A stretch of DNA of 64,000 nucleotides from Corynebacterium sp. ACRPS (GTDB lineage: Bacteria > Actinomycetota > Actinomycetes > Mycobacteriales > Mycobacteriaceae), in the NCBI RefSeq assembly GCF_022346005.1, contig NZ_JAKRMY010000001.1, positions 1 through 64,000 of the forward strand. Reading direction: 5' to 3'. Below, in pieces: positions 26,779 through 56,133 of this stretch. Both the position numbers and the translations under genes were made by a program. The notes under the pieces were generated by a model. It was not told where the DNA came from, searched no databases, and saw nothing but the letters and a program-made list of their open reading frames with translations. Numbering within the stretch: the first letter of the stretch is position 1; each line of letters opens with the position of its first letter.

Positions 26779-26783
26779 AATTG

Positions 26784-26856
26784 TACCCCGTACGGGATTT
26801 GAACCCGTGTTACCGGCGTGAGAGGCCGGCGTCCTAGGCCGCTAGACGAACGGGGC
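26784..26856 (-). tRNA. tRNA-Glu (CTC)
   Basis: 73 bases. Acceptor GCCCCGT pairs with ACGGGGT (G1-U72), D arm TCGTCTAGCGGCCTAGGA, anticodon stem-loop CCGGC-CTCTCAC-GCCGG with CTC, T loop TTCAAAT, discriminator A. CCA is not encoded. It differs from the second copy at one D-loop base and one T-loop base. Confidence 0.93.
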
Positions 26857-27046: not shown

Positions 27047-28487
27047 GGCTTAAGGGACATTTTGTGTGGGATTTGAGGTGTCGATTCATTCCTTGAGCTG
27101 GGGCAAGGTGCGGATATTGAATTGGAATCAGTTCCAACCTGAGGTTTAGCCCTCAAATACGCCGGTCATTGCCCACCTGTGGTATTTGAACCTGCTACGG
27201 CAATTCTTATGACAGGTCGTAGGAATCGCCCAGCATGCGCGATCTGCGGAACAAGCATGCACAAGAACGGCACAACAACAGCAGGAACCCCACGCTGGCG
27301 TTGCCCCAACTGCAACGCTTCACAAACCGGCACCAGGGCCAACACCGCCAATATCCAGCACTTCAAAGTATTTTTAGACTGGGTCCTTACCGGCGAACCA
27401 GCAGAACGCATAGCACACCGCCTTCACGTCACCCGACGCACACTCACCCGGTGGTTTACCTTCTTCTGGTTCATCGTGGTGCCCTCACATACCGACAAGT
27501 TCCGCGTCTACGACCAGTTGTTTATCGACGGCACCTACTTTCACAACAAATGCCTGCTTGTTGCGTGCACCGCCGAACACCCCGTGGCCTGGCTATGGTG
27601 CACCGGGGAATCAAAATACAACTACGCCAGACTCCTGGACATGCTCGCACCACCGCTGATCGTCACGATCGATGGCTCTGGCGGTGCCCGCGCAGTCATT
27701 AAAAAGCACTGGCCAGATACTAAAATCCAGCGATGTCTCGTTCATGTTCAGCGCAATATCCTCACCGACATCTCACGTCATCCCCGCTATCCAGCGCATA
27801 AAGCACTGCGCACGTTCGCGTATCAGCTCACACATATCGAAACTCAGGATGAAGCACGCGAGTTCATCACCAGAGTCCACAAGGCCAGCGTGACATTCGG
27901 CCCCTGGTTGAAAGAGAAAACATACCGCAGCCAGGTAAAAGCCGCAGATATACCGCGGTGGGTCAAGCCGAGTCAAAAATTCTGGTTCACGCACCGTGGC
28001 GCTAGGCGAAGCTTCAACAGGCTCAATGAACTTATCAACGACGGAACGCTATTTACCTACCTGAATCCGCCTGAAGGCGTGACCTGCGACGTGAAGTCCA
28101 CAACGAACCTGCTTGAAGGCGGAATCAACAAGCAGCTCAAAGACCTTGCCAGAGCCCATCGTGGAACCTTCGATGAGCATCAACGCATCATCATGGATTG
28201 GTGGCTCTATGTCCGCACGGAAAACCCAGTGCCGCCGCTACAGCTAGCTCTTGAGCAAGATTTCGGACGCAAAGGCGAAGAGAAGGCACAGGCGGCCTGG
28301 GCCGAAGAAGAAATCAAGCGCCGAGGCCATGCTGATGGTCGACCAGCCGCCTATGACACGGGAATCGATTCCGAATGGAATCCCAGCCTTGGAGTGCGCA
28401 AAGGCTGGGCTGGACGCGGATAAATCCCACACAAAATGTCTCTTACCACGACACGCCACAGATCCCACACATTTTGTCCCTTAAGCC
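27047..28487 (+). mobile_element. IS1249-type insertion sequence (IS256 family)
   Basis: 1441 bases with near-perfect terminal inverted repeats: GGCTTAAGGGACATTTTGTG at 27047-27066 and its reverse complement at the right end (to 28487), continuing into GTGGGAT/ATCCCAC. An inner second copy of the ACAAAATGTC motif lies at about 28430-28442. It carries a single intact transposase gene and is flanked by AAAATT on both sides. It lies in the T tract of the terminator of the second tRNA-Glu gene. Confidence 0.85.
27209..28423 (+). CDS. IS1249-type transposase
   Basis: 404 residues from ATG 27209 (MTGRRNRPACAIC); a GTG ten codons upstream is also in frame. An N-terminal zinc ribbon (CAICGTSMHKNG...WRCPNC) and an HTH (AHRLHVTRRTLTRWF) precede the DDE core: Asp in FIDGTYFHNK, Asp in VTIDGSGGARAVI and a Glu in LEGGINKQLKDLARAHRG. 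The last 60 residues are low in conservation. The frame is intact, so the element may be active. Confidence 0.85.
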   Translation: MTGRRNRPACAICGTSMHKNGTTTAGTPRWRCPNCNASQTGTRANTANIQHFKVFLDWVLTGEPAERIAHRLHVTRRTLTRWFTFFWFIVVPSHTDKFRVYDQLFIDGTYFHNKCLLVACTAEHPVAWLWCTGESKYNYARLLDMLAPPLIVTIDGSGGARAVIKKHWPDTKIQRCLVHVQRNILTDISRHPRYPAHKALRTFAYQLTHIETQDEAREFITRVHKASVTFGPWLKEKTYRSQVKAADIPRWVKPSQKFWFTHRGARRSFNRLNELINDGTLFTYLNPPEGVTCDVKSTTNLLEGGINKQLKDLARAHRGTFDEHQRIIMDWWLYVRTENPVPPLQLALEQDFGRKGEEKAQAAWAEEEIKRRGHADGRPAAYDTGIDSEWNPSLGVRKGWAGRG

Positions 28488-28524: not shown

Positions 28525-28530
28525 TATTTG

Positions 28531-28603
28531 TACCCCGTACGGGATTCGAACCCGTGTTACCGGCGTGAGAGGCCGGCGTCCTAGGCCTCTAGACGAACGG
28601 GGC
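28531..28603 (-). tRNA. tRNA-Glu (CTC), second copy
   Basis: 73 bases, same fold as the first copy with anticodon CTC. D loop has AGAGG (AGCGG in the other) and the T loop is the standard TTCGAAT. Confidence 0.93.
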
Positions 28604-30426: not shown

Positions 30427-30606
30427 GGCCACCATCGTAGTGGAGTCACAGGACACAGTCCGCACCAGCCCAAACCAGCGCCTCACCCTACCACCCAAAA
30501 GTGCGCCCCCATGTACTTTATTACACGCAAAAAGGGGTAGATGATAACGGGTTTCATTATAAACACACAGGTAAACGGGAACAGTTTCCAAAAGATTATC
30601 CAGTAT

Positions 30607-30626
30607 TGGGAATCATTTTCTATAGT
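30607..30626 (+). promoter_or_regulatory. Zur-like box abutting a -10 element, upstream of the anchored-repeat operon
   Basis: TGGGAATCATTTTCT (30607-30621) matches 12 of 15 positions of the actinobacterial Zur core TGAAAATCATTTTCA as I remember it. Its last base overlaps a TATAGT -10 candidate (30621-30626), where a repressor would block transcription. The first operon gene starts 43 bases further on. Confidence 0.45.
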
Positions 30627-30668: not shown

Positions 30669-33131
30669 GTGGCTTCTCCTCGTATTCGCTTCATGGCCGC
30701 ATTCAGCACGATCGCGCTGATTGCCCCGGCTACCGCCTACGCCGGCCCCGACGATGGCAAACACATCGCAACCCAAACCCACGTCGATTCCCCCAAGAGC
30801 TTTTGGGAAGGAGACAACTTCCTACTGCGATCCGAATTTTCCGGCCAAACTCCGCTTATCGATGACACCGTTGCCTGGATAGGCAAAGGCTATAACCGCG
30901 AAGACGAGGACGGTAAGCGCCGCCAGAACTTTATGTATTCCCTGCCAGAAAACGGCACGCAGGACTACATCGGTCCTACAGGCACCACCTACTACACGGC
31001 CCCGTACCAAGCCTCCGCCAATCAAGAACCCATCTGGATCGGTTTCGGCGCAGACACTGGGCTTCCCGTGAAAGATTTCCGCGATAACATCGCCTTCCTC
31101 GACCTCTTAAGCGTGGATGGCCCAGGCGACGTGGAGCTTTTTACCAACAAGGACGATAAAGACGGCGCCGAGCTCCATCGCATGCTGGGCTCCTTCCAAG
31201 ACTCACCGCACTCTACATACCTCAATGCCGGTACCCATACCCATAACGCCACTCTCTTTACCAAGCCCGGCCGTTATCGATTGACCTATCGCACCACCGC
31301 TCGCACGGCGGATGGGCAGCTCGTGGCTAGTGAGCCGCAAACCACCAGCTACCAAGTGGGCGGGCAAAAGCCAAAGGATGACAAGACCCCAAGCCTCAAG
31401 GAACGCTTCGATAGCTCCTCCTCCGGCGATGCCGCCGCTGCTGGTTACAGCCTGAGCATGGACAAAAAGCAGAACCCGGAAAAGGACGGTGACGATAAGC
31501 TCACCACCATTTCCTTCGATGCGGAAAATAAGGCATCCGGCACGCTTACGCTGCTTATCGATGGCTACTTCCTCACCGATCTGCCTGTCGCCGACGGCCA
31601 CGCCGAGTGGGATGAGTACATGGGCCCAGACTCGTCTAATATCCAGGCGGTATTTACCCCAGAAGGCGATGCGCCGCGCTGGATCTCGCAGCAGGTGGAA
31701 TTTACCCCAGGCTCTTCTGTCCACACCGACTCTTCTGATGCCGCAGAGGCATGGGAAGAAGCCGAAAATCCGCGCCAGCTGGCCCCCACCGAAGAGGTAA
31801 CGCTGCAAGAAACCGGCTATACGGTGCGGATGCGCAAACAGGGCGAAGAAGGAACCAAAATCATCATCGACATGGAGGACAATAACTTCAGCGGCGTGAT
31901 GACTGGTGGTCTCTATGACGACAAGAACGACGCGGAACCCACGGCACCAGTGGAAGCCCCAATTACCAACGGGCACGGAGAGGCAACTTTTACCAATGGC
32001 GAACTCTTTAAGAACACGATTGCCAAAGTAAACGTCTTCCCTCACTCCACTGTCAAGGCAGGACATGGCAGCACGGTGCTAGCTGAGCCCTTTGAATTCG
32101 GCGAAAACTACGAAGCGACAGGCGAGCTTTCTACCAGCGCGGATGACAACGCCGCTACCCCAGGCGAAAAACCTGGGTCCGGCGATTCACCCGCACCCGG
32201 CGATACGCCTGCACCATCTCAACCGTCACAGGACGAGGAAGCTCAGCGCTGCAGCGAAAAGCAGGTACTTGACCGCGGGCACGTCGATATCAAGGCACTG
32301 CCTACTGACGATGGTTTCCGCACCGTCCTACGCGATGACACAGGACAAATTGATAAGAACTCGGTAGACCGCTCGTTGGATGACGTCGTACTTGGCGTGC
32401 ACAAAAACGCGCTTACTCCCCGCTCCCGACAGCTGGGTGATAAGGAGTTCGATTTCCTTGGCAACATCGGTGACCGTTTCTACCACCTGCCGCAGACGCA
32501 GAACCAAGCCATCATCTGGCCGGGGTATAACACCGAAAAATTGGATTACTCCAAGATGAAAGATGGCCAAGTCAATTTGAACCTCAAGCCCAAGCACACG
32601 CCAGAGGGCGCTGAGTGGGGCGTATATATCGATAAAACCAGGGGCGTTGGATATGACATCCTTGCCAATTCCGCCGAAGACGATCACACGATCGAGACCA
32701 CCTTCGCATCGCATAGGCATACCCACTGGGCTTTTACTAAGCCGGGCATCTACACGTTTGAGGCAACCTATACGGCAACTACTACCGACGGCAAAGAACT
32801 TGCATCCAAGCCACAGACGTTGACCTTTGCCATTGGTGATGACGCGGTGAAGTCCTGTTCTACGGCTGCGCCATCCGATGCCCCATCGGAAAAGCCTTCC
32901 GAGACGCCGTCCGAAAAGCCTTCGGACTCGGCAAAGCCATCTAAGCCCTCGAAACCGTCTAAGCCTTCGAAGCCGTCCGAGCCATCTAAGCCGTCTACTC
33001 CTGCGGGGCCATCGTTTAATCCTTGGGCTCTGGTCTTGCCTGCGGTTCTTGGCATCACCTTCAAGGCCTTCTACAACTTCTTCCGCGACAACCAAGATCT
33101 CATTCGTGAGCGCTTTGGCTGGCGCATCTAA
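30669..33131 (+). CDS. anchored-repeat surface protein with two repeat units and C-terminal membrane anchor
   Basis: 820 residues from a GTG start with AGAAAGG nine bases upstream. Signal peptide (residues 1-26, ending ATAYA). Repeat unit 1 spans about 35-235, with THVD at 37-40 and THTH ending in His192. Two related beta-rich segments of about 110 residues follow (240-500) and match no family I know. Repeat unit 2 spans about 530-740, with GHVD (His538), LPQTQ...IIWPGYNT and HRHTH (His682, 684, 686). A Pro/Ser/Lys linker of EKPS/KPSKPSK repeats precedes a membrane segment (about 782-804) and a short basic tail. There is no LPxTG. It matches the actinobacterial ABC-transporter-associated repeat wall proteins. 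First gene of the operon. Confidence 0.82.
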   Translation: MASPRIRFMAAFSTIALIAPATAYAGPDDGKHIATQTHVDSPKSFWEGDNFLLRSEFSGQTPLIDDTVAWIGKGYNREDEDGKRRQNFMYSLPENGTQDYIGPTGTTYYTAPYQASANQEPIWIGFGADTGLPVKDFRDNIAFLDLLSVDGPGDVELFTNKDDKDGAELHRMLGSFQDSPHSTYLNAGTHTHNATLFTKPGRYRLTYRTTARTADGQLVASEPQTTSYQVGGQKPKDDKTPSLKERFDSSSSGDAAAAGYSLSMDKKQNPEKDGDDKLTTISFDAENKASGTLTLLIDGYFLTDLPVADGHAEWDEYMGPDSSNIQAVFTPEGDAPRWISQQVEFTPGSSVHTDSSDAAEAWEEAENPRQLAPTEEVTLQETGYTVRMRKQGEEGTKIIIDMEDNNFSGVMTGGLYDDKNDAEPTAPVEAPITNGHGEATFTNGELFKNTIAKVNVFPHSTVKAGHGSTVLAEPFEFGENYEATGELSTSADDNAATPGEKPGSGDSPAPGDTPAPSQPSQDEEAQRCSEKQVLDRGHVDIKALPTDDGFRTVLRDDTGQIDKNSVDRSLDDVVLGVHKNALTPRSRQLGDKEFDFLGNIGDRFYHLPQTQNQAIIWPGYNTEKLDYSKMKDGQVNLNLKPKHTPEGAEWGVYIDKTRGVGYDILANSAEDDHTIETTFASHRHTHWAFTKPGIYTFEATYTATTTDGKELASKPQTLTFAIGDDAVKSCSTAAPSDAPSEKPSETPSEKPSDSAKPSKPSKPSKPSKPSEPSKPSTPAGPSFNPWALVLPAVLGITFKAFYNFFRDNQDLIRERFGWRI

Positions 33132-33188
33132 CTACTAATCCACAGCTAATGGGAACCCCAGCCCAAACGCTCTAAAGGAATAACAACC

Positions 33189-34781
33189 ATGGATACCAAC
33201 ACCATTTCACGCACCAGAGCTCACCGGCCTGGCAGCCGCATCATCGCGGCGGTAATTACCGCCCTCATCGCGTTTTTCGTTCCGGTCACACCGGCCTTGG
33301 CCTTCGATGAGGTCTTTGATTCCGGACATATCGACGCGTTCTACGTCACGGCACCTGATGGCCAGCTACACCTATCCATGCAGGAAGATGTCACCGGCTC
33401 GCACGTCCAGCGCCCTGGCGATGACGTGCTGCTCCAGGTCGTGGAATCGGCATGGTCCGATGCCACCGAGGCCGTTCCCGAGATTGGAGAATCGACCTAC
33501 TTCCTGCCCCAAACCCAAGACCCAAATATCATCTGGCCGGGCTGGGATACTCAGCCGGCACGCGATGGCGGATTCACCAGCGTTGACTTCGAATTCACCA
33601 ATATCTCTGGGCCGGGCTCAGTCTATGTTTTTGAAACCTCTGGGTTCGGCAACGTCGGTGCCGTGACCAATTCCGGTTCGATGGAGCTGACCAGCGGCGA
33701 GGTTATTAACCAGCCGAGTCCTGCACACCGGCACGTCAACTGGGCCTTTAGTGAGGCAGGTACCTATGAGATGACTGTTCAGGCCTCCTCTAATGGCCAA
33801 ACCAGTAACGCAGTGACCTATACCTGGCAGGTAGGCGAAGGCGGAGAGACAGTCTCCGGTCACCGTTCTGCGGGCGGTTCTGGCGAGGCAGATAACTCCG
33901 GCAATGACGCTGGACACAGCAATTCCGAGGGTGGCCAAGGCGGCAACGCTGCAAGCGGCGGACAGTCCACGGATCCAGAGTGCCGTCCGGGTATTATCCC
34001 GCAGATTAAAGACGATACGGTCTCGCCGCCGCAGTGGCGCGATGCCGATGGCGCAACTTTTTACCTCTCCGATAATTCCAGCGTCGAGCTGCCAGAAGAT
34101 GTTGGACCTGTTTCGGCCGGCCAAGCCTGGATGATTGGTTCTACGCAGGTCGATGGCGTGCCGTGGCTCGGTGCGAATACCCAGAGCCCCTCCATGCGCG
34201 AACACATTCCAGGTGATGTTACTTGGGAGCTCGTCGATATGAAGGGCCCTGGTGCCATGATGGTCTACAGCCAGGGTGGCCTGGGCAAAATCGTCGGCGA
34301 TGAATGGTTCCGCGGCGCGAACGGCGCTGTGGAAGGCAGCTACAATATCGCCCCCAATACCCACGTGCACCCTAACTGGGTCTTCGAAAAGCAGGGCACC
34401 TATGACGTGACGATCCGCCAGGTGGCCCAGACCTCTGCCGGCAAGCAAGTAGCAGGCCAAGCAACGCTGCACTTTGTCGTCGGCGGTGGCAGGCCAGATG
34501 GCTCCTTCGATAATGGCCACTTCGACCTGGGCGCGGAAGTGAACCCGGATGGCGGCGACTGTGGTGTTGGCGCCGCAGCCGGCGCGGGCTCTAATGGTTC
34601 CGGTGCTGGCCAGGATGGCGCTGGCGGTTCCGGTGCGAATACGTCCGGTAAGGGCAGCAACGCGGCTCTTGCCAATACTGGGACCCCCACCATGCCTCTC
34701 GGAATCGGTGTGCTCGGCCTGGGCATGCTGTTCCTTGGCCTGGGTATTGCACGACTCGCTGTCGCGAGGGCAAAGAATTAA
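33189..34781 (+). CDS. anchored-repeat surface protein with LANTG sortase-type signal
   Basis: 530 residues. Signal peptide ending PALA (about 38). Unit 1 (about 44-220): GHID (His47), FLPQTQ...IIWPGWDTQ, HRHVNWAF (His180/182). A Gly/Ser/Asn linker follows. Unit 2 (about 255-430) lacks the GHxD opening and has WLGANTQ and THVHPNW (His392/394). It is followed by a detached opening piece GHFD (His444). The C-terminus is LANTG (494-498), hydrophobic stretch, RAKN: a sortase sorting signal with Ala in place of Pro. Two units in a wall-attached protein beside the binding-protein gene is the arrangement described for the anchored-repeat families, interpreted as a surface receptor. Confidence 0.82.
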   Translation: MDTNTISRTRAHRPGSRIIAAVITALIAFFVPVTPALAFDEVFDSGHIDAFYVTAPDGQLHLSMQEDVTGSHVQRPGDDVLLQVVESAWSDATEAVPEIGESTYFLPQTQDPNIIWPGWDTQPARDGGFTSVDFEFTNISGPGSVYVFETSGFGNVGAVTNSGSMELTSGEVINQPSPAHRHVNWAFSEAGTYEMTVQASSNGQTSNAVTYTWQVGEGGETVSGHRSAGGSGEADNSGNDAGHSNSEGGQGGNAASGGQSTDPECRPGIIPQIKDDTVSPPQWRDADGATFYLSDNSSVELPEDVGPVSAGQAWMIGSTQVDGVPWLGANTQSPSMREHIPGDVTWELVDMKGPGAMMVYSQGGLGKIVGDEWFRGANGAVEGSYNIAPNTHVHPNWVFEKQGTYDVTIRQVAQTSAGKQVAGQATLHFVVGGGRPDGSFDNGHFDLGAEVNPDGGDCGVGAAAGAGSNGSGAGQDGAGGSGANTSGKGSNAALANTGTPTMPLGIGVLGLGMLFLGLGIARLAVARAKN

Positions 34782-36286
34782 TGCCAGTGCCCCACTACCG
34801 TTTCGTACCGCGCGGGCTGCAGGCCGTAGGGGCGCTCTGTAGCGTCTCCCTCCTCGCGGCAGGCTGCACGACCTCGGCAGCGGTGGATACCTCTGATCGC
34901 TTCAGCGTGGTTGCGACGACGCCGATTCTGGCGGATATGGCCCGCCACGTCGCAGGCGAGGATGCCTCGGTCACCGGCCTTATCCCAAGCGGAAAGGACC
35001 CGCACACCTTTGAGCCGACGCTGCGCACGGTGCGCAACGTGGCCAATGCGGATCTTGCCTTGAGCAATGGATACCTCTTGGAACCGCAGTCCCTGATAGA
35101 TACCTTGCACGAGTCCACGGATGCGCCCGTGGTAGAGGTCGCTGACTCCGCCTCCACCCGCGGCGCTACCCTCGTGCCGCTGGTAGAAGATGTCTCCCTG
35201 GATGCCATCTGGTTGGGCCTGCGCATTAGCGGTGCCGAGCAGCGCAACTCCGGCGTGGATTTCCGCATGGTCTCTGCCGAGGGGCCAGGCGATGTCGCAG
35301 CCTACGTGGTCTCCACCTTCGGCACGCCGGAAGTGCTGTTTAATAGCGCCGATGGCATCGACTCAGGCGAAGATGCGGTCACCCTCCCGGCCAACGCGCA
35401 CACGCACGTCTCGTGGGGTTTTTCGGAGCCGGGCATCTATAAGCTGGGCTTTCAGGCAGATGGCACTGAGGTAGAGCATCTAACCGTCGCGGTAGGCGTG
35501 AACCCGCCGGAAGATGTGGATGTCATTGATTCCGGCCACGTGGATATTGCCGCTGATGTGGCTAAGGGATCTATTGATCTGCGCGATCAAGACCAGCATT
35601 TTGATCCCGCTGATACCGCGGTGGCGGTCCCCTCCTCGGTATTGCAGCCCATTCCGCCGGATCCCGCCTACCGCTTCTTGGGAACCCCCGGTGCGGATAC
35701 CTACCTGCTCCCCCAAGCGGTCTTAGGTAAACACATCCACGGCGAAGTGGACCCGCACCTATGGCACAACGTGGACAATGCCATTGCCTATGTCGATGTC
35801 ATCGCTGAAGAAATGGCGAATGCGGATCCGTCGCACGGCGCCGATTACCGCGCCCGTGCCGAGTCCTATATCGCAGAACTGCGCGAGCTTGACGGGTATG
35901 TGGACCGCGCGATCTCTTCCATCCCGCAGAGCAACCGGCACTTGGTCACCACCCACCACGGCTATGCCTACTTAGAGCAAGGCTATGGCCTGTCGGTGGC
36001 TGGGTTCGTGACGCCCAATCCCGCCATTGAGCCTTCGCCACGGGAGGTCATTGCCCTGCGCCGGACGCTGGAGAACCTGCACCTTCCCGCGGTCTTTGTG
36101 GAGCCCGTGGAACAGGCTAGTGCCAGCACGCTGAAGGAGGCCGCCGCGCAGCAAAACGTGGAGCTGTGCCCCATTTACGGCGACACGCTTGATGATGCCG
36201 TGCCTACTTATATCGATCTCATGAAATTCAATGCTGACTCGCTGCAGCGTTGCCTACATCCTTCGAATGGAGATAACCATGCTTAA
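34781..36286 (+). CDS. metal-type ABC transporter binding lipoprotein with inserted repeat domain
   Basis: 501 residues, about 200 longer than ordinary ZnuA-type proteins. Lipobox LAAGC (Cys29). Lobe I starts VVATTPILADMARHVAGED, with the first metal ligand in KDPHTFEP (His75). From about residue 125 to 315 a repeat-type segment interrupts the fold (WLGLRISG, HTHVSWGF with His207/209, then GHVDI with His253 and FLGTPGADTYLLPQ). The binder then resumes with DPHLWH (His326), the third ligand in TTHHGYAY (His392) and GDTLDD (Asp468). His-His-His-Asp is the zinc/manganese cluster A-I set. The start overlaps the preceding stop (TAATG). Confidence 0.87.
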   Translation: MPVPHYRFVPRGLQAVGALCSVSLLAAGCTTSAAVDTSDRFSVVATTPILADMARHVAGEDASVTGLIPSGKDPHTFEPTLRTVRNVANADLALSNGYLLEPQSLIDTLHESTDAPVVEVADSASTRGATLVPLVEDVSLDAIWLGLRISGAEQRNSGVDFRMVSAEGPGDVAAYVVSTFGTPEVLFNSADGIDSGEDAVTLPANAHTHVSWGFSEPGIYKLGFQADGTEVEHLTVAVGVNPPEDVDVIDSGHVDIAADVAKGSIDLRDQDQHFDPADTAVAVPSSVLQPIPPDPAYRFLGTPGADTYLLPQAVLGKHIHGEVDPHLWHNVDNAIAYVDVIAEEMANADPSHGADYRARAESYIAELRELDGYVDRAISSIPQSNRHLVTTHHGYAYLEQGYGLSVAGFVTPNPAIEPSPREVIALRRTLENLHLPAVFVEPVEQASASTLKEAAAQQNVELCPIYGDTLDDAVPTYIDLMKFNADSLQRCLHPSNGDNHA

Positions 36287-37169
36287 CCTTGCCTCTCGAA
36301 CCGTTACCCGCGCGGCCACTCGCACGGCAGCCTGCATCGTCACCGCCGGCTTAGCCGTATCCGCAACGCCTGCTTGGGCCGACGACCTCGCGCAGGTGGT
36401 CGGCGCGGATGAAACCGTGGCGCCCGAGGGCGAAGAAAAGGTCATCGATGCGGGCCACGTTGACATCGGCACGCTGCTGGATGGCTCCGATGCCGAGCTA
36501 TTGGCCCGCGATGATGCAGGCGATTCCCCGGTGTGGCGCCACCTTGATGACCTGGTGTTCTCAGTAGGCGACGCGGCCCAGCAAACGCTGCCGGATACCG
36601 ATGAGTTCAGCTTCGTCGGTGCACAATCTGGCGAGGATGTCTGGGTTGTCCCGCAGACTGAGCAGGCCGGCGTCCCGTGGCTGGGGTGGAATACCCAGGC
36701 GCCTTCGCTTGTCGATAACGCTGATCGCGGCGTCACCATGGAATTCCTCGGCCACTCCGGCCCAGGGGATTTTTCCCTCTTCTTGCAAAACGGCGGCTTT
36801 GAGGCACCCCAGCTGCTGTGGTCTACGGCAGAAAAAGGCGAGTCTGAGTTCTGGGTAGACCTCAATACGCACACCCACGCCAACTGGACTTTTACGGAGC
36901 CGGGCACCCACCAGGTGGGTATCCGGATCAAGGGTGAAACCACAAACGGCGAGGAGTTTAGTACCGATGGCGTGCTGACCTTCGCCGTGGGCGATGGCGC
37001 AGCCATCCAGGCCGCCCAGGATGCGGAGTGGAGCCCAGCAGACGCCACGACCGAGGATTCTTCCCTACCGGTATGGGTGTATGTCTTGGTCGGCGGCGGA
37101 ATTATCGTGCTGATCGCCGGTGTTGCCGTGCTCGTGAAATCTCGTAAGCGAGGCGATGGCCATGTCTAA
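36279..37169 (+). CDS. membrane-anchored single-repeat protein of the transporter operon
   Basis: 296 residues. Signal peptide (to about 34, ending PAWA), then one complete repeat unit of about 190 residues: GHVDIGTL (His60), VVPQTEQAGVPWLGWNTQ, GPGDFSLF, NTHTHANWTFTEPG (His198/200), TFAVGDG. The C-terminal membrane segment VYVLVGGGIIVLIAGVAVLV is followed by KSRKRGDGHV. Start 36279 has GGAG six bases before it and overlaps the binding-protein stop by eight bases. The cleanest single copy of the repeat in the operon, useful for defining its borders. Confidence 0.83.
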   Translation: MLNLASRTVTRAATRTAACIVTAGLAVSATPAWADDLAQVVGADETVAPEGEEKVIDAGHVDIGTLLDGSDAELLARDDAGDSPVWRHLDDLVFSVGDAAQQTLPDTDEFSFVGAQSGEDVWVVPQTEQAGVPWLGWNTQAPSLVDNADRGVTMEFLGHSGPGDFSLFLQNGGFEAPQLLWSTAEKGESEFWVDLNTHTHANWTFTEPGTHQVGIRIKGETTNGEEFSTDGVLTFAVGDGAAIQAAQDAEWSPADATTEDSSLPVWVYVLVGGGIIVLIAGVAVLVKSRKRGDGHV

Positions 37170-37890
37170 GCCGTGCATTCAGGTGCGCGGATTGCAGGTA
37201 GCGCTATCTGGCCGCACCGTGATTGAGGACGCCAACCTCGAGGTAGGTACCGGTGAATTCATTGGGCTTCTAGGCCCCAACGGCGCGGGCAAGACCACGC
37301 TGATGCGCGCCATTTTGGGCCTAATCCCCTCCTCCGGCACGTGCACCGTCACCGGCTCTGTGGGCTATGTTCCCCAGCGCCACGAGGTGGAATGGGGCTT
37401 TCCCATCAACGTGTACCGCACCGTGCTCAGCGGGCGGACCGGACTCATCGGGTGGTTCAAGCGCCCTAAGAAAAAGGATCATGCCGCCGCTGCAGAAGCG
37501 CTGCGCTTGGTGCATATGGAGGAATTTGCCTCCCGGCCCATCGAGGAGCTTTCCGGCGGCCAGCGCCAGCGCGTACTGATCGCCCGCGCCCTCGCCATTC
37601 AGCCGGAGGTCTTGCTACTCGATGAACCTTTTACCGGGCTCGACGCCCCGAATACCGAGGCCCTTTTGGAGCTTTTCGCCGAGCTTGCGGCGCAAGGAAA
37701 ATCCATCGTGATGTCTACCCATAACCTGTCTGAGGCGGCGCACACGTGCAAGCGCCTCGTGCTATTTAATCGCACGGTCATTGCAGACGGCCCCGCCGAG
37801 GAGCTTTTGGCCGAGAAAGATCCGTGGACCCACGCGTTTGGCGTCAGTGCCTCGTCCCCGTTGCTCGCTGCGATTGGAGTGGCTGCATGA
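37156..37890 (+). CDS. anchored-repeat ABC transporter ATP-binding protein (ZnuC-like)
   Basis: 244 residues. Walker A GPNGAGKTTLM, a VPQRHEVEWGFPINV Q-loop typical of metal ABC ATPases, signature LSGGQRQRVLIARAL, Walker B LLLDEPFTGLD, switch His in STHNLSEAAHTC. ATG 37162 is an equally plausible start. The gene overlaps both neighbours (14 bases with the single-repeat protein, ATGA with the permease), so subunit ratios are likely fixed by coupled translation. Confidence 0.9.
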   Translation: MAMSKPCIQVRGLQVALSGRTVIEDANLEVGTGEFIGLLGPNGAGKTTLMRAILGLIPSSGTCTVTGSVGYVPQRHEVEWGFPINVYRTVLSGRTGLIGWFKRPKKKDHAAAAEALRLVHMEEFASRPIEELSGGQRQRVLIARALAIQPEVLLLDEPFTGLDAPNTEALLELFAELAAQGKSIVMSTHNLSEAAHTCKRLVLFNRTVIADGPAEELLAEKDPWTHAFGVSASSPLLAAIGVAA

Positions 37891-38807
37891 TTGATATCTC
37901 ATTTATCGATTTCCTGCGGGATTTAACCAATCCCCACCTCGATTTCCTAGCCCGGGCAGTGGGCATTTCGCTCATCGCCGCCATCGTGTGCGGAATCATC
38001 GGCTGCTATGTGGTGCTGCGTGGCATGGCCTTTATTGGTGATGCCGTCTCACACGCCGTGTTCCCAGGCCTGGCCATCGCCTTTGCGCTGCAGACCTCAG
38101 TCCTCTTGGGCGGGGCGGTTGCCGGCGCGGTCGTCGCGGTGCTTATCGCCGCGTTTTCGCAACGCAACCACGTGCGCGCGGATTCCATTATCGGCATCTT
38201 TTTTGCCGCCGCCTTCGCCTTAGGCATGGTGATCATCTCGCGCACGGATGGCTATAGCGCATCGCTCACCAGCTTCCTCTTCGGTTCGCTCACCGGCGTT
38301 TCGCGCACAGATATCACCGTCGCCGCGAGCGTCTGCCTCGTGGTCCTAGCCGTGGTCGTGGCCTTTGGCCCGCAGCTCAATGCCACCTGCTTGGACCGGG
38401 AGACCGCCCGCGCCATGGGCCTGCCGGTCTTTGCCCTGGATATCATCCTCTACCTGTGTGTGACCGCCGCGGTGGTCATTTCCGTAAGCACGATCGGCAA
38501 TATCTTGGTCCTCGCCCTGCTGATTACCCCAGCCGCCACGGCGCGCCTGCTGACGGCCAACCTCACCACGATGATGTTCCTCTCGGCCATCATCGGTGCC
38601 GTCTGCAGCTTCTTCGGCATCTATTTGGCGTGGGCCATCGATCTTCCCGCGGGCGCGACCATCGTGCTCACGCTCACGGTCCTCTTCCTCATTGTCTGGG
38701 CCCTGCATCCCTTCCTGCGCTCTCGCCGCAAACCGGGCCACTCTTCTCCTCGCGTGCCAGCTAACGCCTCCGAGAACACCCCACGAAAGGAAACCATCGA
38801 ATCATGA
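37887..38807 (+). CDS. anchored-repeat ABC transporter permease (ZnuB-like)
   Basis: 306 residues with about eight to nine membrane segments of the ABC-3 metal permease family: YVVLRGMAFIGDAVSHAVFPGLAIAF near the N-terminus is the diagnostic stretch (metal path), and ALLITPAATARLLT is the ATPase contact region. Start 37887 overlaps the ATPase stop. The C-terminus is a short hydrophilic tail overlapping the next gene (ATGA). It transports whatever the repeat-containing binding protein delivers; metal is the family expectation. Confidence 0.9.
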   Translation: MIDISFIDFLRDLTNPHLDFLARAVGISLIAAIVCGIIGCYVVLRGMAFIGDAVSHAVFPGLAIAFALQTSVLLGGAVAGAVVAVLIAAFSQRNHVRADSIIGIFFAAAFALGMVIISRTDGYSASLTSFLFGSLTGVSRTDITVAASVCLVVLAVVVAFGPQLNATCLDRETARAMGLPVFALDIILYLCVTAAVVISVSTIGNILVLALLITPAATARLLTANLTTMMFLSAIIGAVCSFFGIYLAWAIDLPAGATIVLTLTVLFLIVWALHPFLRSRRKPGHSSPRVPANASENTPRKETIES

Positions 38808-40369
38808 AACCCTTGTGCCGTACCGCTCTTGCCCTAGGCACCGCCGGATTCCTCAGCGTGGGAACCCTCACCGGTGTGGGTCTACCCTCTTCCGTTATGG
38901 CCACCGCGCATGCCGCAGAGACCTGCAGCGCAGAGGACTTTATCCGCATCACCGAAGGCCACCAAGACATGGCGCTCAAGGATGAAGGCGGGGATATCAG
39001 CTTTGTGGTCAAAGACGACCAAAAAGAAAAGGAATACCAGTCCGAAGAATTCGCGGTAGAGGTAGCGGAGAAGAACAAGCAGCGTATTTCTGATCTCAAC
39101 ATCCCTTCCCTGCCTGACGAGGGATGGGTGCTCCCGCAAACCCAGATTGAGGATGTTCCGTGGCTGGGCTTTAATACCCAGGAACTCTCGGAGGAATACC
39201 TCGGCTCGAAGCAGACCGCGACCTTGAGCATGGCCATCGCGTCTGGCCCAGAGGATGGGCGCATCGTGGCCTTCCAAAACGAGGGCATCGGCGATCTCAA
39301 GGTCCGTATGGATACCGAGGACGGCACCGCTTGGGACTATCCGGGCAGGTCCCACTCCCACCCTGCCTTCGCTTTTACCAAGCCGGGCACCTACGCCGTG
39401 AGCTTTACCTTTGAGCTTCCCGATGGCTCCCGCCACCACCTGCACGCCGGATTCCTCGTGGGAGATGACGCGGATCCAGCAGAGCTGTGTGGTGTGGACT
39501 ACGACGAGTCCGATGATGCCGAGGGAAGCGTCCCTTCCGATGGAACCTCCCGCCCGAAACAGCTGGCCAAGGACATCAGGGGAGTAGATAAAGCCATCGC
39601 GGGCCTGGATAAGGAGCTGGAAAATACTTTGAAGGAAGGCCAAAAATTCCTCGAGGGCGATAAAAAGAAGGAGAAAGATTCCAAGGATAAATCCGGCGAT
39701 AAGCCGTCTAAGCAGGGCCAGTCCGGTGGATCCGGCGGCTCCGGTGGGAAGGCCGCAGAGAAAAATTCTGGTTCGAAGCAGGGATCCAACCAAGGCTCCA
39801 AGTCTGGGTCGAAGTCCGGTTCCACCAAGGGCTCTGCTCGCGGTTCTGGCCAGAGCAAGACTAACCAAGCCCACGGTTCTGGGGCAGGCTCTGGTGCTGC
39901 GTCGCGCAATTCGGGTGGGGGCTCATCGAAGGGATCATCGGCAAGCAGCGGCTCTCGCTCCGGTTCTAAGGCTGCGCACTCCAAGTCCGGCGGAAGTTCT
40001 GGCCAGAAATCCGCGGGCAAGTCCTCCCCGCAATCCAAGAGCAACAAGTCTAAGGACAGCAAATCAAAAGGAACGAAGTCTGGAAAGCACAGTTCAGCTC
40101 CTGCGCCCAACGCGTCTGCAGGTGGCAAGAACCAGAACAATGAAGCGCTTGCCGGTGCCGCCTACACCGCCTCACTGACCAAGAGCAGCTTTTGGGCGGG
40201 CATCTTGGCGGGGCTCGGCGCATTCGCCCTCGTGCTAGGAATTGGCCTGTTGGTCTATGTCCAATTCTTCCGCAAGAAGAAGCAAGCTGGAGAACAGTCT
40301 GAGCAGCCAGAACAGCCTGGGCCGCCGCAAGCAGATGATGCCACGACGCAGATCCCGCGCGTCGACTAG
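38804..40369 (+). CDS. single-repeat protein with long Ser/Gly/Lys linker and membrane anchor
   Basis: 521 residues. Signal peptide (to about 38, ending AHA), one repeat unit (about 40-235: GHQD with His53, VLPQTQIEDVPWLGFNTQ, SHSHPAFAFTKPG with His184/186, FLVGDDAD), a short coiled coil (about 255-285), then about 170 residues of Ser-Gly-Lys low complexity. A membrane segment (about 461-489) and an RKKKQ tail with acidic C-terminus follow. The linker would span the peptidoglycan. Last gene of the operon, coupled to the permease (ATGA). The repeat is the most divergent of the set. Confidence 0.78.
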   Translation: MKPLCRTALALGTAGFLSVGTLTGVGLPSSVMATAHAAETCSAEDFIRITEGHQDMALKDEGGDISFVVKDDQKEKEYQSEEFAVEVAEKNKQRISDLNIPSLPDEGWVLPQTQIEDVPWLGFNTQELSEEYLGSKQTATLSMAIASGPEDGRIVAFQNEGIGDLKVRMDTEDGTAWDYPGRSHSHPAFAFTKPGTYAVSFTFELPDGSRHHLHAGFLVGDDADPAELCGVDYDESDDAEGSVPSDGTSRPKQLAKDIRGVDKAIAGLDKELENTLKEGQKFLEGDKKKEKDSKDKSGDKPSKQGQSGGSGGSGGKAAEKNSGSKQGSNQGSKSGSKSGSTKGSARGSGQSKTNQAHGSGAGSGAASRNSGGGSSKGSSASSGSRSGSKAAHSKSGGSSGQKSAGKSSPQSKSNKSKDSKSKGTKSGKHSSAPAPNASAGGKNQNNEALAGAAYTASLTKSSFWAGILAGLGAFALVLGIGLLVYVQFFRKKKQAGEQSEQPEQPGPPQADDATTQIPRVD

Positions 40370-51526: not shown

Positions 51527-53377
51527 TTATGCCTCCTGGATGGTTTCGTCAATCTCAGCCGGGGTTTCCGCGGCGGATTCAGCTTCATCAAAAAGCGGGC
51601 GCAGGCCGCGGGCGTATTGGATTTCCTCATTGGAGGCACCTCCACCGATCATCGGCCACACCTGCGCATCTTGGCCGACGATGAAGTCAATGACAACTGG
51701 CTTATCGTTAATTTCCTGCGCGCGCTTAATGGCCGGAACGACTTCTTCTTCGCTCGTGACCCGGATGGCTTCACAACCGAGTGCCTCGGCCAAACGGACG
51801 AAGTCCGGGGTGAAGGCGTTTTCTTCGCGCAGCTTGGTGTGCGAATAGTGCTGGTCATAAAACAGCGTCTGCCATTGCCGGACCATTCCAAGGTTTCCGT
51901 TATTAATGACGGCAACCTTAAACGGGAAGCCTTCCACGGCGGCGGTGGTAAGTTCCTGGTTGGTCATTTGGAAGCAGCCATCACCATCGATGGCCCAGAC
52001 TTCCTTATCTGGGCGCGCTGCCTTTGCACCCAAGGCAGCGGGAACGGCATAGCCCATGGTTCCAGCACCACCGGAGTTGATCCACGAACGCGGGTGTTCA
52101 AAGTCCAAGAACTGCGCGGACCACATCTGGTGCTGGCCCACGCCCGCACAGTAGATAGCTTCCGGCCCCACGGTCTCACTGAGCTTTTCCAAGACGAATT
52201 GCGGGTTCAGCAGGCCATCATCGGTGGGCTCATAACCGCGCGGGAAACGCTGCTGCATGCCGCGCAGGTAATCATGCCACTGTTTCACCTCGGCGGCCGG
52301 CTGTACATCCTTCTTGCGGTACTCCTTACTCAACGCGGTCAAGCACTTTTTGGCATCGCCGACGATGGGGACCGTAACTTCCCGGATCTTGCCAATCTCA
52401 GCTGGGTCAATATCGGCGTGGACGACCTTCGCATTGGGTGCGAATGTTGAGGTATCGCCGGTCACGCGATCATCGAAGCGGGCACCGATGGCAATGATGA
52501 GATCGGCGCGCTGCATCGCCGCGACGGCTGGGACCGTGCCGTGCATGCCCGGCATTCCCAGGTGCAGCGGGTGGGAGTCCGGAAAGGTCCCCAGCGCCAT
52601 CAAGGTGGTAACCACAGGGATATTCGTGAGTTCCGCAAACTCCAGCAACTCTTGGGAGGCATTAGCTTTAACGACTCCGCCGCCGACGTAGAGCACGGGC
52701 TTTTCCGCTTGCGACATCAATTCCACGGCCTGGGCCACCTGCCGGTGGTGTGGCTTGGTGACTGGCTTGTATCCCTGCAGGTCAAGCGTTTCCGGGAAGC
52801 GATAATCTACAAAGCCGTTTTGCACGTCCTTCGGGATATCCACGAGCACCGGACCGGGGCGGCCGGTGGAAGCCAAGTGGAAGGCAGCCGAAATTGCAGA
52901 AGGGATCTCGGCGGGATCCGTCACGATGTAGTTGTGCTTGGTAATGGGCATGGTGACACCGCGGATATCGGCCTCTTGGAAGGCATCGGTGCCCAAAAGG
53001 TTGCTGCCCACCTGGCCGGTGATGGCGACGATGGGAACGGAGTCCAGGTTGGCATCGGCAAGCGCGGTAACCAGGTTGGTCGCACCAGGACCGGAGGTAG
53101 CGATGCACACGCCCACCTTTCCGGAAGCCTGCGCATAGCCCTCGGCGGCGTGGCCGGCGCCTTGTTCATGGCGGGTTAGCACATGGCGAAGCTTCGTTGA
53201 ACCATGCAGTGCATCGTAGAGCGGAAGCACGGCACCGCCGGGAATACCGAATACGAGATCGGTGCCCAGATCTTCCAGCGTGCGGACAATAGCATGAGCC
53301 CCACTCATTCGCTCCGCAGACGCAGCAGAAGTTGCAGCGGCCGCGGAAGCAGGCGTGGGCGAGGATGTCGTTACCAC
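51527..53377 (-). CDS. ilvB: acetolactate synthase large subunit
   Basis: 616 residues. Thiamine-diphosphate enzyme for the first common step of branched-chain amino acid synthesis. The catalytic Glu is in [15 protein letters not shown]; the ThDP/Mg motif is [15 protein letters not shown]...[12 protein letters not shown]; the quinone-type FAD region is present as [15 protein letters not shown]. The N-terminus is an Ala/Ser-rich extension. It is preceded by an attenuator leader. Confidence 0.96.
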
Positions 53378-53547: not shown

Positions 53548-53679
53548 ATTTCCAACTATATACCGATAGAATTATATCTGGAAGCGATTACCCCCTTTTG
53601 GGAAAACTTTCCCATATGTTGAAACGCGGTGGAAAAATGGTTCGCTTCCCCACCACATGGTCAATTAGGCTGGCTGACT

Positions 53680-54279: not shown

Positions 54280-56133
54280 ATGTTCCCACTGCGCTCTAAA
54301 GTAACCACCGTCGGACGTCAAGCCTCCGGTGCGCGTGCCTTGTGGCGCGCTACCGGTACCAAAGAAAATGACTTTGGCAAGCCGATTGTCGCCATCGCCA
54401 ACTCTTATACGCAGTTCGTCCCCGGCCACGTGCACCTGAAAAATGTCGGTGATATCGTCGCCGATGCCGTCCGCGAAGCCGGTGGCGTGCCCAAGGAGTT
54501 CAATACCATTGCCGTGGACGACGGCATTGCCATGGGGCATAGCGGCATGCTGTACTCTTTGCCCTCGCGCGAAATCATCTCCGATTCCATCGAGTACATG
54601 GCCAATGCGCATACTGCCGATGCCCTCGTCTGCATCTCCAACTGCGATAAGATCACCCCGGGCATGCTCAATGCCGCAATGCGGTTGAATATCCCCACGA
54701 TCTTCGTCTCCGGCGGACCTATGGAGGCCGGCAAGGCCGTCGTGGTCGATGGCGTTGCTCATGCTCCGACCGACCTGATTACCGCAATCACCGCATCCGC
54801 AAACGATAGCGTGAGCGATTCCGGCTTGGCCCAGGTCGAAGAATCCGCCTGCCCCACCTGCGGTTCCTGCTCCGGCATGTTTACGGCCAACTCCATGAAC
54901 TGCTTGACCGAGGCTCTCGGTTTGGCGCTTCCTGGCAATGGCACCACCCTAGCCACCCACAGCGCGCGCCGTGAGCTCTTTGAAAAGGCCGGCTCCACCA
55001 TCGTGGATATGTGCCGCCGCTACTACGGCGAGGAAGACAAGTCCGTCCTGCCGCGCAATATCGCCACCAAGGAAGCCTTTACTAATGCCATGGCCCTCGA
55101 TATGGCCATGGGCGGATCCACCAACACCATCCTGCACACCCTCGCCGCAGCGCAGGAGGGCGAAGTGGACTTCACGCTGGATGATATTAATGACATCTCC
55201 TACCGCGTGCCTTGCCTGTCCAAGGTTGCGCCCAACGGCACCTATCACATCGAGGATGTGCACCGCGCCGGCGGCATTCCGGCCATTTTGGGCGAGCTGC
55301 GCCGCGCGGGCCACCTCAACCTCAAGGTGCACACCGCCCTCTATGACAATGCGGAGCAGTGGCTCGATGATTGGGATATCCGCAATCCCCGCGTAACCGA
55401 TCAGGCCCGCGAGCTGTACTACGCCGCTCCCGGTGGCGTGCGCACGACGGAGCCATTCTCCCAGTCCAACCGGTGGGATGAACTAGATACTGACGCGGTC
55501 AATGGCTGCATTCATGATGCCGACCACGCCTTTTCTTCCGACGGCGGCCTGGTGGTCCTGCGCGGCAACCTGGCGCCAGACGGGGCCATCGTCAAGGCAG
55601 CCGGCGTGGAAGAAGAGCTGTGGACCTTCTCTGGCCCAGCCCGCGTGGTGGAGTCCCAAGAGCAGGCCGTGTCCATCATCTTGAATAAAGAAGTCCAGCC
55701 AGGCGATGTCGTCGTCATTCGCTACGAGGGCCCCTCCGGTGGCCCCGGCATGCAGGAGATGCTCCACCCGACGTCCTTCCTCAAGGGCGCAGGTTTAGGC
55801 AAGGCCTGCGCCTTGATTACCGACGGCCGCTTCTCCGGCGGCACCTCCGGGCTCTCCATCGGCCACATTTCTCCTGAGGCCGCCCACCAGGGGCTTATCG
55901 GGCTCATTGAGAACGGCGATACCATTTCCATCAATATCCACGAGCGCGAGCTCACGCTCGACGTGGACGATGATGTTCTGGAGCGCCGCCGCGCCGCGCA
56001 AGAACAACGCGAAAAGCCATGGACGCCGGTGGACCGCAACCGCCCGATTACCAAGGCGCTGCGCGCCTATGCCGCGATGGCGACCTCCGCGGACCGCGGC
56101 GCGGTGCGCGTGGTAGACGGCTTTGTGAACTAG
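54280..56133 (+). CDS. ilvD: dihydroxy-acid dehydratase
   Basis: 617 residues. Dehydrates dihydroxy acids to 2-keto acids, the third step of valine/isoleucine synthesis. Iron-sulfur ligands are in [10 protein letters not shown] and [35 protein letters not shown] and the C-terminal [21 protein letters not shown] are intact. The start has AAAGGAATGG upstream. A run of nine C bases (54237-54245) lies 34 bases before the start codon. Confidence 0.96.

What the first reader, a model, noticed from the sequence alone, without database searches (positions are those of the whole stretch)
30669..40369. Seven-gene anchored-repeat ABC transporter island: a possible surface-to-membrane metal relay
Seven overlapping or closely spaced genes encode a ZnuABC-like transporter plus four secreted proteins that share one repeat domain with the binding protein. 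One is sortase-signal-bearing, three have membrane anchors with linkers of different length. The arrangement matches the actinobacterial anchored-repeat transporter families known by model name, for which a substrate-binding relay has been proposed, but I know of no settled ligand or mechanism. Here the set is large (five repeat-bearing proteins), and the graded linkers would place repeats at different depths of the wall.
Basis: partly seen in the sequence, partly recalled or inferred. Interest (0 to 1): 0.85.

Follow-up and report, generated by a model that had tools for sequence, protein, structure and literature searches.

The report
Zinc importer with wall-anchored helper domains
A seven-gene cluster in a Corynebacterium encodes a probable zinc importer and four surface proteins that share one probable zinc-binding domain; its relative in the diphtheria bacterium was characterised in 2025, but the way the domain is re-ordered and grafted onto the importer's binding protein makes the idea of a zinc hand-over chain testable.

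Summary
In detail: seven tightly packed + strand genes (30669-40369) encode an ABC metal importer (binding protein, ATPase, permease) and four exported proteins; five of the seven carry one repeat domain (seven domains). The kind is known: the TIGR03769-03773 models hit, and its relative znuAECB/znuF-G of C. diphtheriae is zinc- and Zur-controlled with zinc-binding ZnuE/F (PMC6711530, PMC12445094). So 'no settled ligand' is out of date: zinc. Two Zur-box matches above all 20 random controls, plus a weaker third, precede the first gene; every complete domain row checked keeps a His-x-Asp/His-x-His quartet. Added here: (1) the domain inside the binding protein is a circular permutation, inserted where the zinc protein AztC has its D-loop, the loop that takes zinc from a partner protein; the sortase-type protein's second domain is permuted too; (2) one relative fuses the binding protein to ZnuE, and a few fuse the permease to the next surface protein; (3) linkers keep their order (medians 25, 59, 243 residues; 17 of 17 measurable loci). 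These favour direct zinc hand-over but do not prove it; published knockouts show the outer proteins dispensable and perhaps zinc-withholding.

The parts
30539..30559 (.). candidate Zur site 1 (AGATGATAACGGGTTTCATTA)
   Evidence: matrix from 5 published C. glutamicum sites scores 20.2, second best in 64 kb; best of 20 first-order-Markov windows 18.1
30573..30593 (.). weaker candidate Zur site 2
   Evidence: score 15.6, third in the window but within the random range (up to 18.1); counterparts at the same offset score 15.9-18.3 in the close relatives L001-L003, L005, L009, L010, L021, L022
30604..30624 (.). candidate Zur site 3 (TATTGGGAATCATTTTCTATA), ending 45 bases upstream of the GTG start
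   Evidence: score 24.1, best in the window
30669..33131 (+). P1: exported two-domain protein, 820 aa, weak C-terminal hydrophobic segment (ZnuF-like architecture)
   Evidence: NF038134 296.4 bits; two domains; linker 60 aa
30768..31358 (+). P1 domain 1
   Evidence: NF038134 139.2 bits
32265..32834 (+). P1 domain 2
   Evidence: NF038134 170.2 bits
33189..34781 (+). P2: sortase-type surface protein, 530 aa, one canonical and one permuted domain (ZnuG-like anchoring)
   Evidence: TIGR03773 304.8 bits, cut-off 190.3
33315..33833 (+). P2 domain 1, canonical order (HxD then HxH)
   Evidence: NF038134 137.3 bits
34002..34544 (+). P2 domain 2, circularly permuted: body first, GHFD strand last
   Evidence: doubled profile 116.4 bits wrapping 27-209 vs 106.4 for the single profile; AlphaFold2 strand 443-451, mean pLDDT 92 for residues 441-450
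34668..34682 (+). LANTG sortase-type motif of P2
   Evidence: sequence, followed by a hydrophobic stretch and short charged tail; motif recognised from memory
34781..36286 (+). ZnuA-type substrate-binding lipoprotein (SBP), 501 aa
   Evidence: TIGR03772 609.9 bits; VIA-align Z about 31-32 to MntC, AztC, YfeA; lipobox-like LLAAGC (recalled motif)
35162..35719 (+). circularly permuted repeat domain inserted in the SBP (residues 128-313)
   Evidence: NF038134 positions 76-167 come first, then 1-74; doubled profile 68.9 bits in one hit vs 43.0 and 19.0
36267..37169 (+). ZnuE-type membrane protein, one domain, C-terminal membrane anchor, linker about 21 aa
   Evidence: NF038134 186.4 bits; linker; start choice 36267 or 36279
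37156..37890 (+). ATPase subunit (ZnuC)
   Evidence: TIGR03771 316.5 bits
37887..38807 (+). permease subunit (ZnuB)
   Evidence: TIGR03770 395.9 bits; start ATG 37887
38804..40369 (+). P7: one-domain protein with about 263-aa low-complexity linker and C-terminal membrane anchor
   Evidence: NF038134 106.0 bits; linker

Best explanation
This is a Zur-repressed zinc-uptake operon of the anchored-repeat (Znu) type. When zinc is scarce Zur lets go of the sites at 30539-30624 and the seven genes are made. The shared ~180-residue beta-sandwich domain holds zinc through a His-x-Asp plus His-x-His quartet. Copies sit on a sortase-type wall protein (P2), on proteins tethered by short (E), medium (P1) and long (P7) linkers, and, as a circularly permuted copy, on the binding protein itself, at the place where AztC has the D-loop that receives zinc from its partner AztD. 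I infer that zinc caught in the wall passes to neighbouring domains, chiefly ZnuE, then to the permuted domain of the binding protein, into its His3-Asp cleft and through the permease. Shown here by sequence: gene run, family, conserved quartets, permutation, SBP site, gene fusions. Shown by others in C. diphtheriae: zinc and Zur control, zinc binding by ZnuE/F, need for ZnuE. Inferred: that the quartet is the zinc site, direct hand-over, and its order. My confidence is about 0.95 that this is a zinc importer of this kind and about 0.45 in direct hand-over; the figure below is for the whole.
For: Family. Zur sites: best two in 64 kb; in 23 of the 26 relative loci (L006-L008 lack the region) the best upstream score is 15.0-28.1, against a 99% point of 12.0 and 5 of 3000 at 15 or more in random 460-base pieces (the over-extended start of L004 was moved). 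Quartet: every row with all four columns is HDHH: SBP 26 of 26, E 26 of 26, P7 22 of 22, P1 domain 1 22 of 27 (4 gapped, 1 partial), P1 domain 2 24 of 27 (2 gapped, 1 partial), P2 domain 1 25 of 27 (the other two are halves of a frameshifted gene), P2 domain 2 17 of 27 (absent or gapped in 10). Permutation: 29 of 29 SBP-type ORFs that passed the filter cross the junction of the doubled profile, and so does L046 from a third family (99.5 vs 43.5 and 43.6 bits); all 96 permease-positive genomes have a TIGR03772 SBP, 90 in one match over the whole model, which spans the insert. SBP site His3-Asp; PsaA, a manganese protein, has Glu where H392 is. Insert lies just before H326, where alignment to solved SBPs breaks; AztC D-loop 117-133 precedes ligand His138 and is essential for transfer from AztD (PMC7463823). 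Fusions: SBP-ZnuE in G253/L039; permease plus repeats in L025 (=G205), L026, G196/L036 and, for the first repeat, G253. Co-occurrence: 96 of 96 permease-positive genomes carry the domain, 6 of 105 negative ones do. Experiments of Peng, Lyman and Schmitt.
Against: In C. diphtheriae znuF and znuG are dispensable with the importer present, and losing their operon restores peak growth without it, which looks like withholding zinc; znuA deletion has only a modest effect; ZnuE(3xA) still shifts with zinc. The quartet could be structural. No coordinates were available to me, so the distance from the permuted domain's quartet to the SBP cleft was not measured; the loop 313-321 has pLDDT under 50. Fusions are rare: one SBP-ZnuE case and two in-frame permease-repeat cases plus one partial among 96 genomes, and adjacent genes fuse most easily. 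In fused permeases a signal-peptide-like stretch remains, so the chain may be cut apart. The loci were found with peptide patterns some of which lie in the insert, and the filter requires an HTH motif, so those two samples lean towards SBPs with the domain. Loci are related and co-occurrence is not corrected for phylogeny.
Confidence: 0.6

Rival explanations
1. Zinc store or buffer: the wall domains bind zinc on the surface and release it as free ions; the importer picks it up on its own. The shared domain reflects common ancestry, not hand-over.
For: Authors' own alternative; plasmid-borne ZnuF or ZnuG harms growth without the importer, and the His residues of ZnuG are needed for that. Domains outnumber importers (5-12 matches per permease-positive genome).
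Against: Does not explain why a copy is built into the SBP (all 96 permease-positive genomes have the TIGR03772 type, 90 as one whole-model match), nor the SBP-ZnuE fusion or the ZnuE phenotype.
Confidence: 0.3
2. Docking system: the domains pair with each other, perhaps through shared zinc, and mainly hold the binding protein in the wall or at the permease; transfer is incidental.
For: Same domain on every extracytoplasmic component; graded linkers with fixed order; re-ordered domain termini suit grafting.
Against: No dimer evidence; every complete domain row keeps a full four-ligand set, which suits one closed site each rather than a bridge. Not tested directly.
Confidence: 0.15
3. The metal is not zinc (manganese, iron or haem).
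For: Importers of this ABC family also carry manganese; the best solved sequence matches of the SBP include manganese proteins.
Against: Zur sites and no DtxR-type iron box within 3 mismatches in the window (the consensus is recalled); His3-Asp site; zinc biochemistry and genetics of the relative.
Confidence: 0.05

Closest known systems
znuAECB / znuFG cluster of Corynebacterium diphtheriae (PMC12445094: abstract, introduction, discussion and the first two of four parts of the results read; PMC6711530: passages and one section read)
   Same: SBP, ZnuE between SBP and ATPase, ATPase, permease, wall and membrane repeat proteins, HxD/HxH motifs in the repeats, motif order reversed in the SBP, Zur control; a three-repeat sortase-type protein elsewhere (CmrA2; here G000:C44, three domains, Zur-like site 21.1)
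   Different: Here one seven-gene run with P1 and P2 in front of the SBP and P7 after the permease, Zur-like sites in front of P1; there the SBP leads and znuF-znuG follow from a second promoter thought to lie in the permease gene. P2 has two repeats, one permuted; ZnuG has one motif. One-to-one orthology of P1, P2 and P7 with ZnuF and ZnuG was not tested.
NCBIfam anchored-repeat set TIGR03769-TIGR03773 and NF038134
   Same: Model hits
   Different: Models name the parts only; P1, E and P7 fall under the TIGR03773 cut-off, P7 under that of TIGR03769
AztABCD of Paracoccus denitrificans (PMC7463823, passages read)
   Same: A partner protein gives zinc directly to an SBP of the same fold; best Foldseek match of the SBP is holo AztC, E 1e-18
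   Different: AztD is a beta-propeller, the repeat a predicted beta-sandwich; here the D-loop position carries a whole folded domain
Streptococcal Pht proteins with AdcAII (as told in the discussion of PMC12445094)
   Same: Wall zinc proteins proposed to feed a zinc SBP
   Different: Pht uses HxxHxH motifs; no homology tested

Membership tests
Anchored-repeat ABC transporter (TIGR03770/71/72) | SBP, ATPase and permease each over the curated cut-off | tested here: met
   609.9/350.45, 316.5/268.8, 395.9/296.8
Anchored-repeat ABC transporter | neighbouring wall protein TIGR03773 over cut-off | tested here: met
   P2 304.8 vs 190.3; P1, E and P7 below it
NF038134 choice-of-anchor M domain | over 55 bits in each of the five proteins | tested here: met
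TIGR03769 short repeat | over 30.9 bits | tested here: inconclusive
   met by P1, P2, SBP (35.7) and E; not by P7 (25.8)
C. diphtheriae-type Znu system | HxD and HxH in every repeat, reversed in the SBP | tested here: met
C. diphtheriae-type Znu system | ZnuE between SBP and ATPase, with membrane anchor | tested here: met
C. diphtheriae-type Znu system | Zur-controlled promoter | tested here: inconclusive
   strong candidate sites only; one Fur-family match in the genome; binding not testable here
C. diphtheriae-type Znu system | zinc binding and role in zinc-limited growth | not testable with these tools
   known for the relative only
Zinc SBP of the ZnuA/AztC fold | fold and metal ligands | tested here: met
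   Z 31.8, rmsd 1.6 A over 254 residues to 6xpn_A; H75, H326, H392, D468 invariant in 24 of 24
AztABCD | AztC equivalog model over cut-off 350 | tested here: not met
   180.9 bits; an AztD homologue was not searched for
Streptococcal Pht family | His triad HxxHxH repeats | not tested
   mentioned for function only

The most novel reading that the evidence does not exclude
The operon builds a physical zinc ladder: like binding domains set at different depths of the envelope by linkers of conserved, graded length pass zinc inward by contact, and the last rung is a circularly permuted copy that replaced the donor-docking loop of the binding protein, so that one domain fold acts as donor, carrier and acceptor gate.
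Probability: 0.3. Interest if true: 0.8.

Novelty: new member of a known kind. Interest (0 to 1): 0.5.

Why it matters
How zinc crosses the thick corynebacterial envelope to a membrane importer when the host withholds it is open; the 2025 study left the roles of ZnuF and ZnuG, and how ZnuE works, unresolved. The permuted domain at the D-loop position, the SBP-ZnuE fusion and the fixed linker order give precise constructs and predictions to separate hand-over from storage, in a system carried by about half of the sampled Corynebacterium species (94 of 201 over the permease cut-off).

Tried and rejected
Fold of the repeat: Foldseek and VIA-align of the P2 model gave only general beta-sandwich matches (best Z 6.8, FmlH lectin domain, rmsd 3.5 A over 122 residues), so no known relative is claimed and none is excluded. 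The searches with the SBP model were filled by the SBP part.

Pfam gives no match at E 0.001 for the four surface proteins. A literature search for 'choice-of-anchor M' or 'zinc' listed ten papers, one of them holding the first term (listing only, not followed). 'circular permut' with 'ZnuA' returned two papers that look unrelated (listing only), and 'ZnuE/ZnuF' only the 2025 paper as relevant. So the permutation was not found in print by these searches; subscription journals and supplements were not seen, nor were the last two parts of the results of PMC12445094.

I first recalled that the loop before the second His ligand of AztC is called the Z-loop; the paper says D-loop (117-133), Z-loop being 222-229, and the argument was rewritten.

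Script one search printed its per-locus table and then stopped in the null model (index error); redid the null with the L004 start moved by hand. In one search rows under 60 bits, and rows under 100 bits, were dropped before counting. One search took SBP-type ORFs through a motif filter that requires an HTH motif: 29 passed, namely the window, L001-L026, L039 and L045. In 28 of the 29 the doubled-profile score exceeds the best single-profile hit; in L039 the best single hit is that of the fused ZnuE part. L046 did not pass the filter and is counted apart; L036, L038 and L040 are not among the 29 (one search shows L038 and L040 in one wrapped hit, L036 in two pieces in permuted order). L027 (Pirellulales, weak match) was left out of all counts.

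Fusion cases: permease frames over 700 aa were G182, G253, G205 and G196 out of 96 matches; G182 proved to carry a tail without a detectable repeat, and in G253 the second repeat lies in another frame. SBP frames over 700 aa were G253, G196 and G276; only G253 is a fusion with ZnuE: the G196 frame ends with the SBP and holds no ZnuE, and G276 has stops inside and was not looked at. L025 and L026 are metagenome bins, by their names of one study.


Full report
What is there. The window comes from a 2.40-Mb genome of a Corynebacterium: the nearest loci are Corynebacterium sp. MSK130 and KPL1814 (98% in the binding protein) and C. macginleyi (96%). Between an ORF that reads by eye like gltX on the other strand and a convergent ORF that reads like a secreted esterase lie seven + strand genes, 30669-40369, mostly overlapping by a few bases. 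In order: P1 (two repeat domains, weak hydrophobic segment), P2 (two domains, LANTG sortase-type signal), SBP (one domain inserted), ZnuE-type protein (one domain, membrane anchor), ATPase, permease, P7 (one domain, long linker, membrane anchor). The finding is confirmed in its main points.

What family. TIGR03770, 03771, 03772 and 03773 are met over their cut-offs, and the domain NF038134 in all five proteins. The experimentally studied relative is the znu cluster of C. diphtheriae, formerly troA-dip0445. There zinc represses it through Zur, ZnuE is required on low zinc, thermal shifts indicate that ZnuE and ZnuF, and probably ZnuG, bind zinc, ZnuF and ZnuG lie in the wall, and the His residues of the HxD/HxH motif matter in vivo though not conclusively in vitro. 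So the statement that no ligand is known is out of date; the mechanism remains open in print as far as I read (abstract, introduction, discussion and the first two of four parts of the results of PMC12445094).

Regulation. A weight matrix from five published C. glutamicum Zur sites (PMC2823685, passages) puts its two best hits of the whole 64 kb at 30604 (24.1) and 30539 (20.2), just before P1, with a weaker third between them (15.6); the best hit in 20 Markov windows of equal size was 18.1. The 23 of 26 relative loci that hold the upstream region score 15.0-28.1 there; random 460-base pieces of the same loci reach 12.0 at the 99% point and 15 or more in 5 of 3000; the loci are related, so these are not 23 independent cases. 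The genome has one Fur-family match and the window no DtxR-type box within three mismatches. A three-domain, 1138-aa sortase-type protein elsewhere (G000:C44, L041:3187-6603), beside a probable sortase gene, has a Zur-like site scoring 21.1 eighty bases upstream, as expected of CmrA2.

The domain. Each domain carries HxD and HxH. In aligned relatives every row that has all four columns keeps H, D, H, H: SBP 26 of 26, ZnuE 26 of 26, P7 22 of 22, P1 22 and 24 of 27, P2 25 and 17 of 27, the rest being gapped, partial or frameshifted rows or proteins without the second domain. AlphaFold2 gives a confident beta-sandwich for P2 (mean pLDDT 76.0 overall, blocks mostly 80-97 within the domains) without a clear relative among solved structures (best Z 6.8).

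Circular permutation. In the SBP the NF038134 profile matches positions 76-167 first and 1-74 afterwards. A profile of ZnuE domains set twice in a row aligns the insert in one piece (model 70-268, 68.9 bits) where the single profile needs two (43.0 and 19.0). All 29 SBP-type ORFs that passed a motif filter cross the junction, and so does the SBP of a genome from a third family (99.5 bits against 43.5 and 43.6, L046), so the permutation is old. That sample leans towards SBPs with the domain; as a check, all 96 permease-positive Corynebacterium genomes hold a TIGR03772 SBP, 90 of them in one match from model position 1-2 to 485-486, which spans the insert, the other six being split or partial. 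P2 domain 2 shows a different cut: its GHFD strand follows the body (116.4 against 106.4 bits; predicted strand 443-451, mean pLDDT 92 for 441-450). The 2025 paper reports the reversed motif order of ZnuA with a shorter spacing; it does not call it a permutation in the parts I read, and two searches found no such statement.

Where the insert sits. The SBP matches MntC, AztC and YfeA at Z 31-32. Sequence alignment to solved SBPs stops at residue 102-112 and resumes at 316-320, six to ten residues before the ligand H326. In AztC the D-loop, residues 117-133, lies just before ligand His138, projects into AztD in a docking model and is essential, with its three His, for zinc transfer (PMC7463823). 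Thus the permuted domain occupies the D-loop position; this equation rests on alignment, not on superposed coordinates, which the tools did not give me. Two further His in the remaining loop, H318 and H320, and the cleft residues H75, H326, H392 and D468 are invariant in 24 of 24 sequences. PsaA, a manganese protein, has Glu at the place of H392, so the site is of the zinc type.

Fusions. G253 (one contig, L039) has one open frame with the SBP behind a lipobox-like motif, about 28 residues of joint between the two matches, and the ZnuE domain with its membrane anchor; no ZnuE signal peptide lies between. It is the only SBP frame over 900 aa among 96 genomes. In L025 (=G205), L026 and G196/L036 the permease reads on without stop into a surface protein with repeats; in G253 it does so for the first repeat only. 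In the sample of 96 that is two in-frame cases, one partial and one tail without repeat (G182). A signal-peptide-like stretch between permease and ectodomain could be cleaved, so these fusions show coupling of production, perhaps also of place.

Linkers. From last domain to hydrophobic segment: ZnuE 0-31 (median 25, 27 sequences), P1 42-111 (median 59, 21 of 25 with a clear segment), P2 32-138 (median 55, 27 of 28), P7 175-263 (median 243, 23 sequences), the window included. The order ZnuE < P1 < P7 holds in 17 of 17 loci where all three could be measured (where a locus has two P1 genes one entered). The window's P1 segment and those of L001-L003 are below my threshold. P2 lacks its second domain and its sortase motif in L011-L016; in L017-L019 the second domain is there but I see no sortase motif, and in L025-L026 the reverse, so the anchoring of that protein is not fixed.

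Distribution. Permease over cut-off in 94 of 201 Corynebacterium genomes, SBP in 95 of 201, domain in 102 of 201; all 96 permease-positive genomes (E up to 1e-70) have at least five domain matches and 6 of 105 negative ones have any. In a sample of the family, the SBP is over its cut-off in 5 of 151 genomes, all in this genus. Across the phylum the permease is over its cut-off in 3 of 396 genomes, this one included.

Mechanism and verdict. The importer kind and its zinc ligand are well supported. Direct hand-over is favoured by the graft at the docking loop, the SBP-ZnuE fusion, the ZnuE phenotype and the fixed linker order; it is weakened by the dispensability of ZnuF and ZnuG, by the modest effect of losing the SBP and by zinc response that survives the His mutations. 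Storage is the main rival. The island is a member of a known kind with structural features that make its open question testable.

Noticed in passing
window 27179-28423: ORF that reads like a transposase of an insertion element, between two tRNA-Glu genes at 26783-26856 and 28530-28603
   Followed up: no
window 53596-53616: Near-perfect palindrome TTTTGGGAAAACTTTCCCATA scoring 14.5 with the Zur matrix, just before an ORF at 53629, between ORFs that read like ilvB (51527-53377, - strand) and ilvD (54280-56133); within the random range
   Followed up: partly
L041:1955-2953 (G000:C44): Probable sortase gene (read by eye) directly before the three-domain CmrA2-like surface protein (L041:3187-6603), which carries its own LASTG-type signal and a Zur-like site
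   Followed up: partly
L017-L019: These three loci, among them C. pseudodiphtheriticum and C. propinquum, carry two P1-like genes in tandem at the head of the operon
   Followed up: no
L038:4008-6182 (G182): Permease runs on into a long low-complexity tail with a terminal hydrophobic segment but no detectable repeat: perhaps a surface protein that has lost its domain
   Followed up: no
L046:9876-11438 (G580): In a 7.8-Mb genome of another family the ZnuE-like protein has two repeat matches and a sortase-like MASTG end instead of a plain anchor
   Followed up: no
G178, G206, G261, G292, G304, G318: Six Corynebacterium genomes carry 1-3 repeat-domain matches without the permease
   Followed up: no
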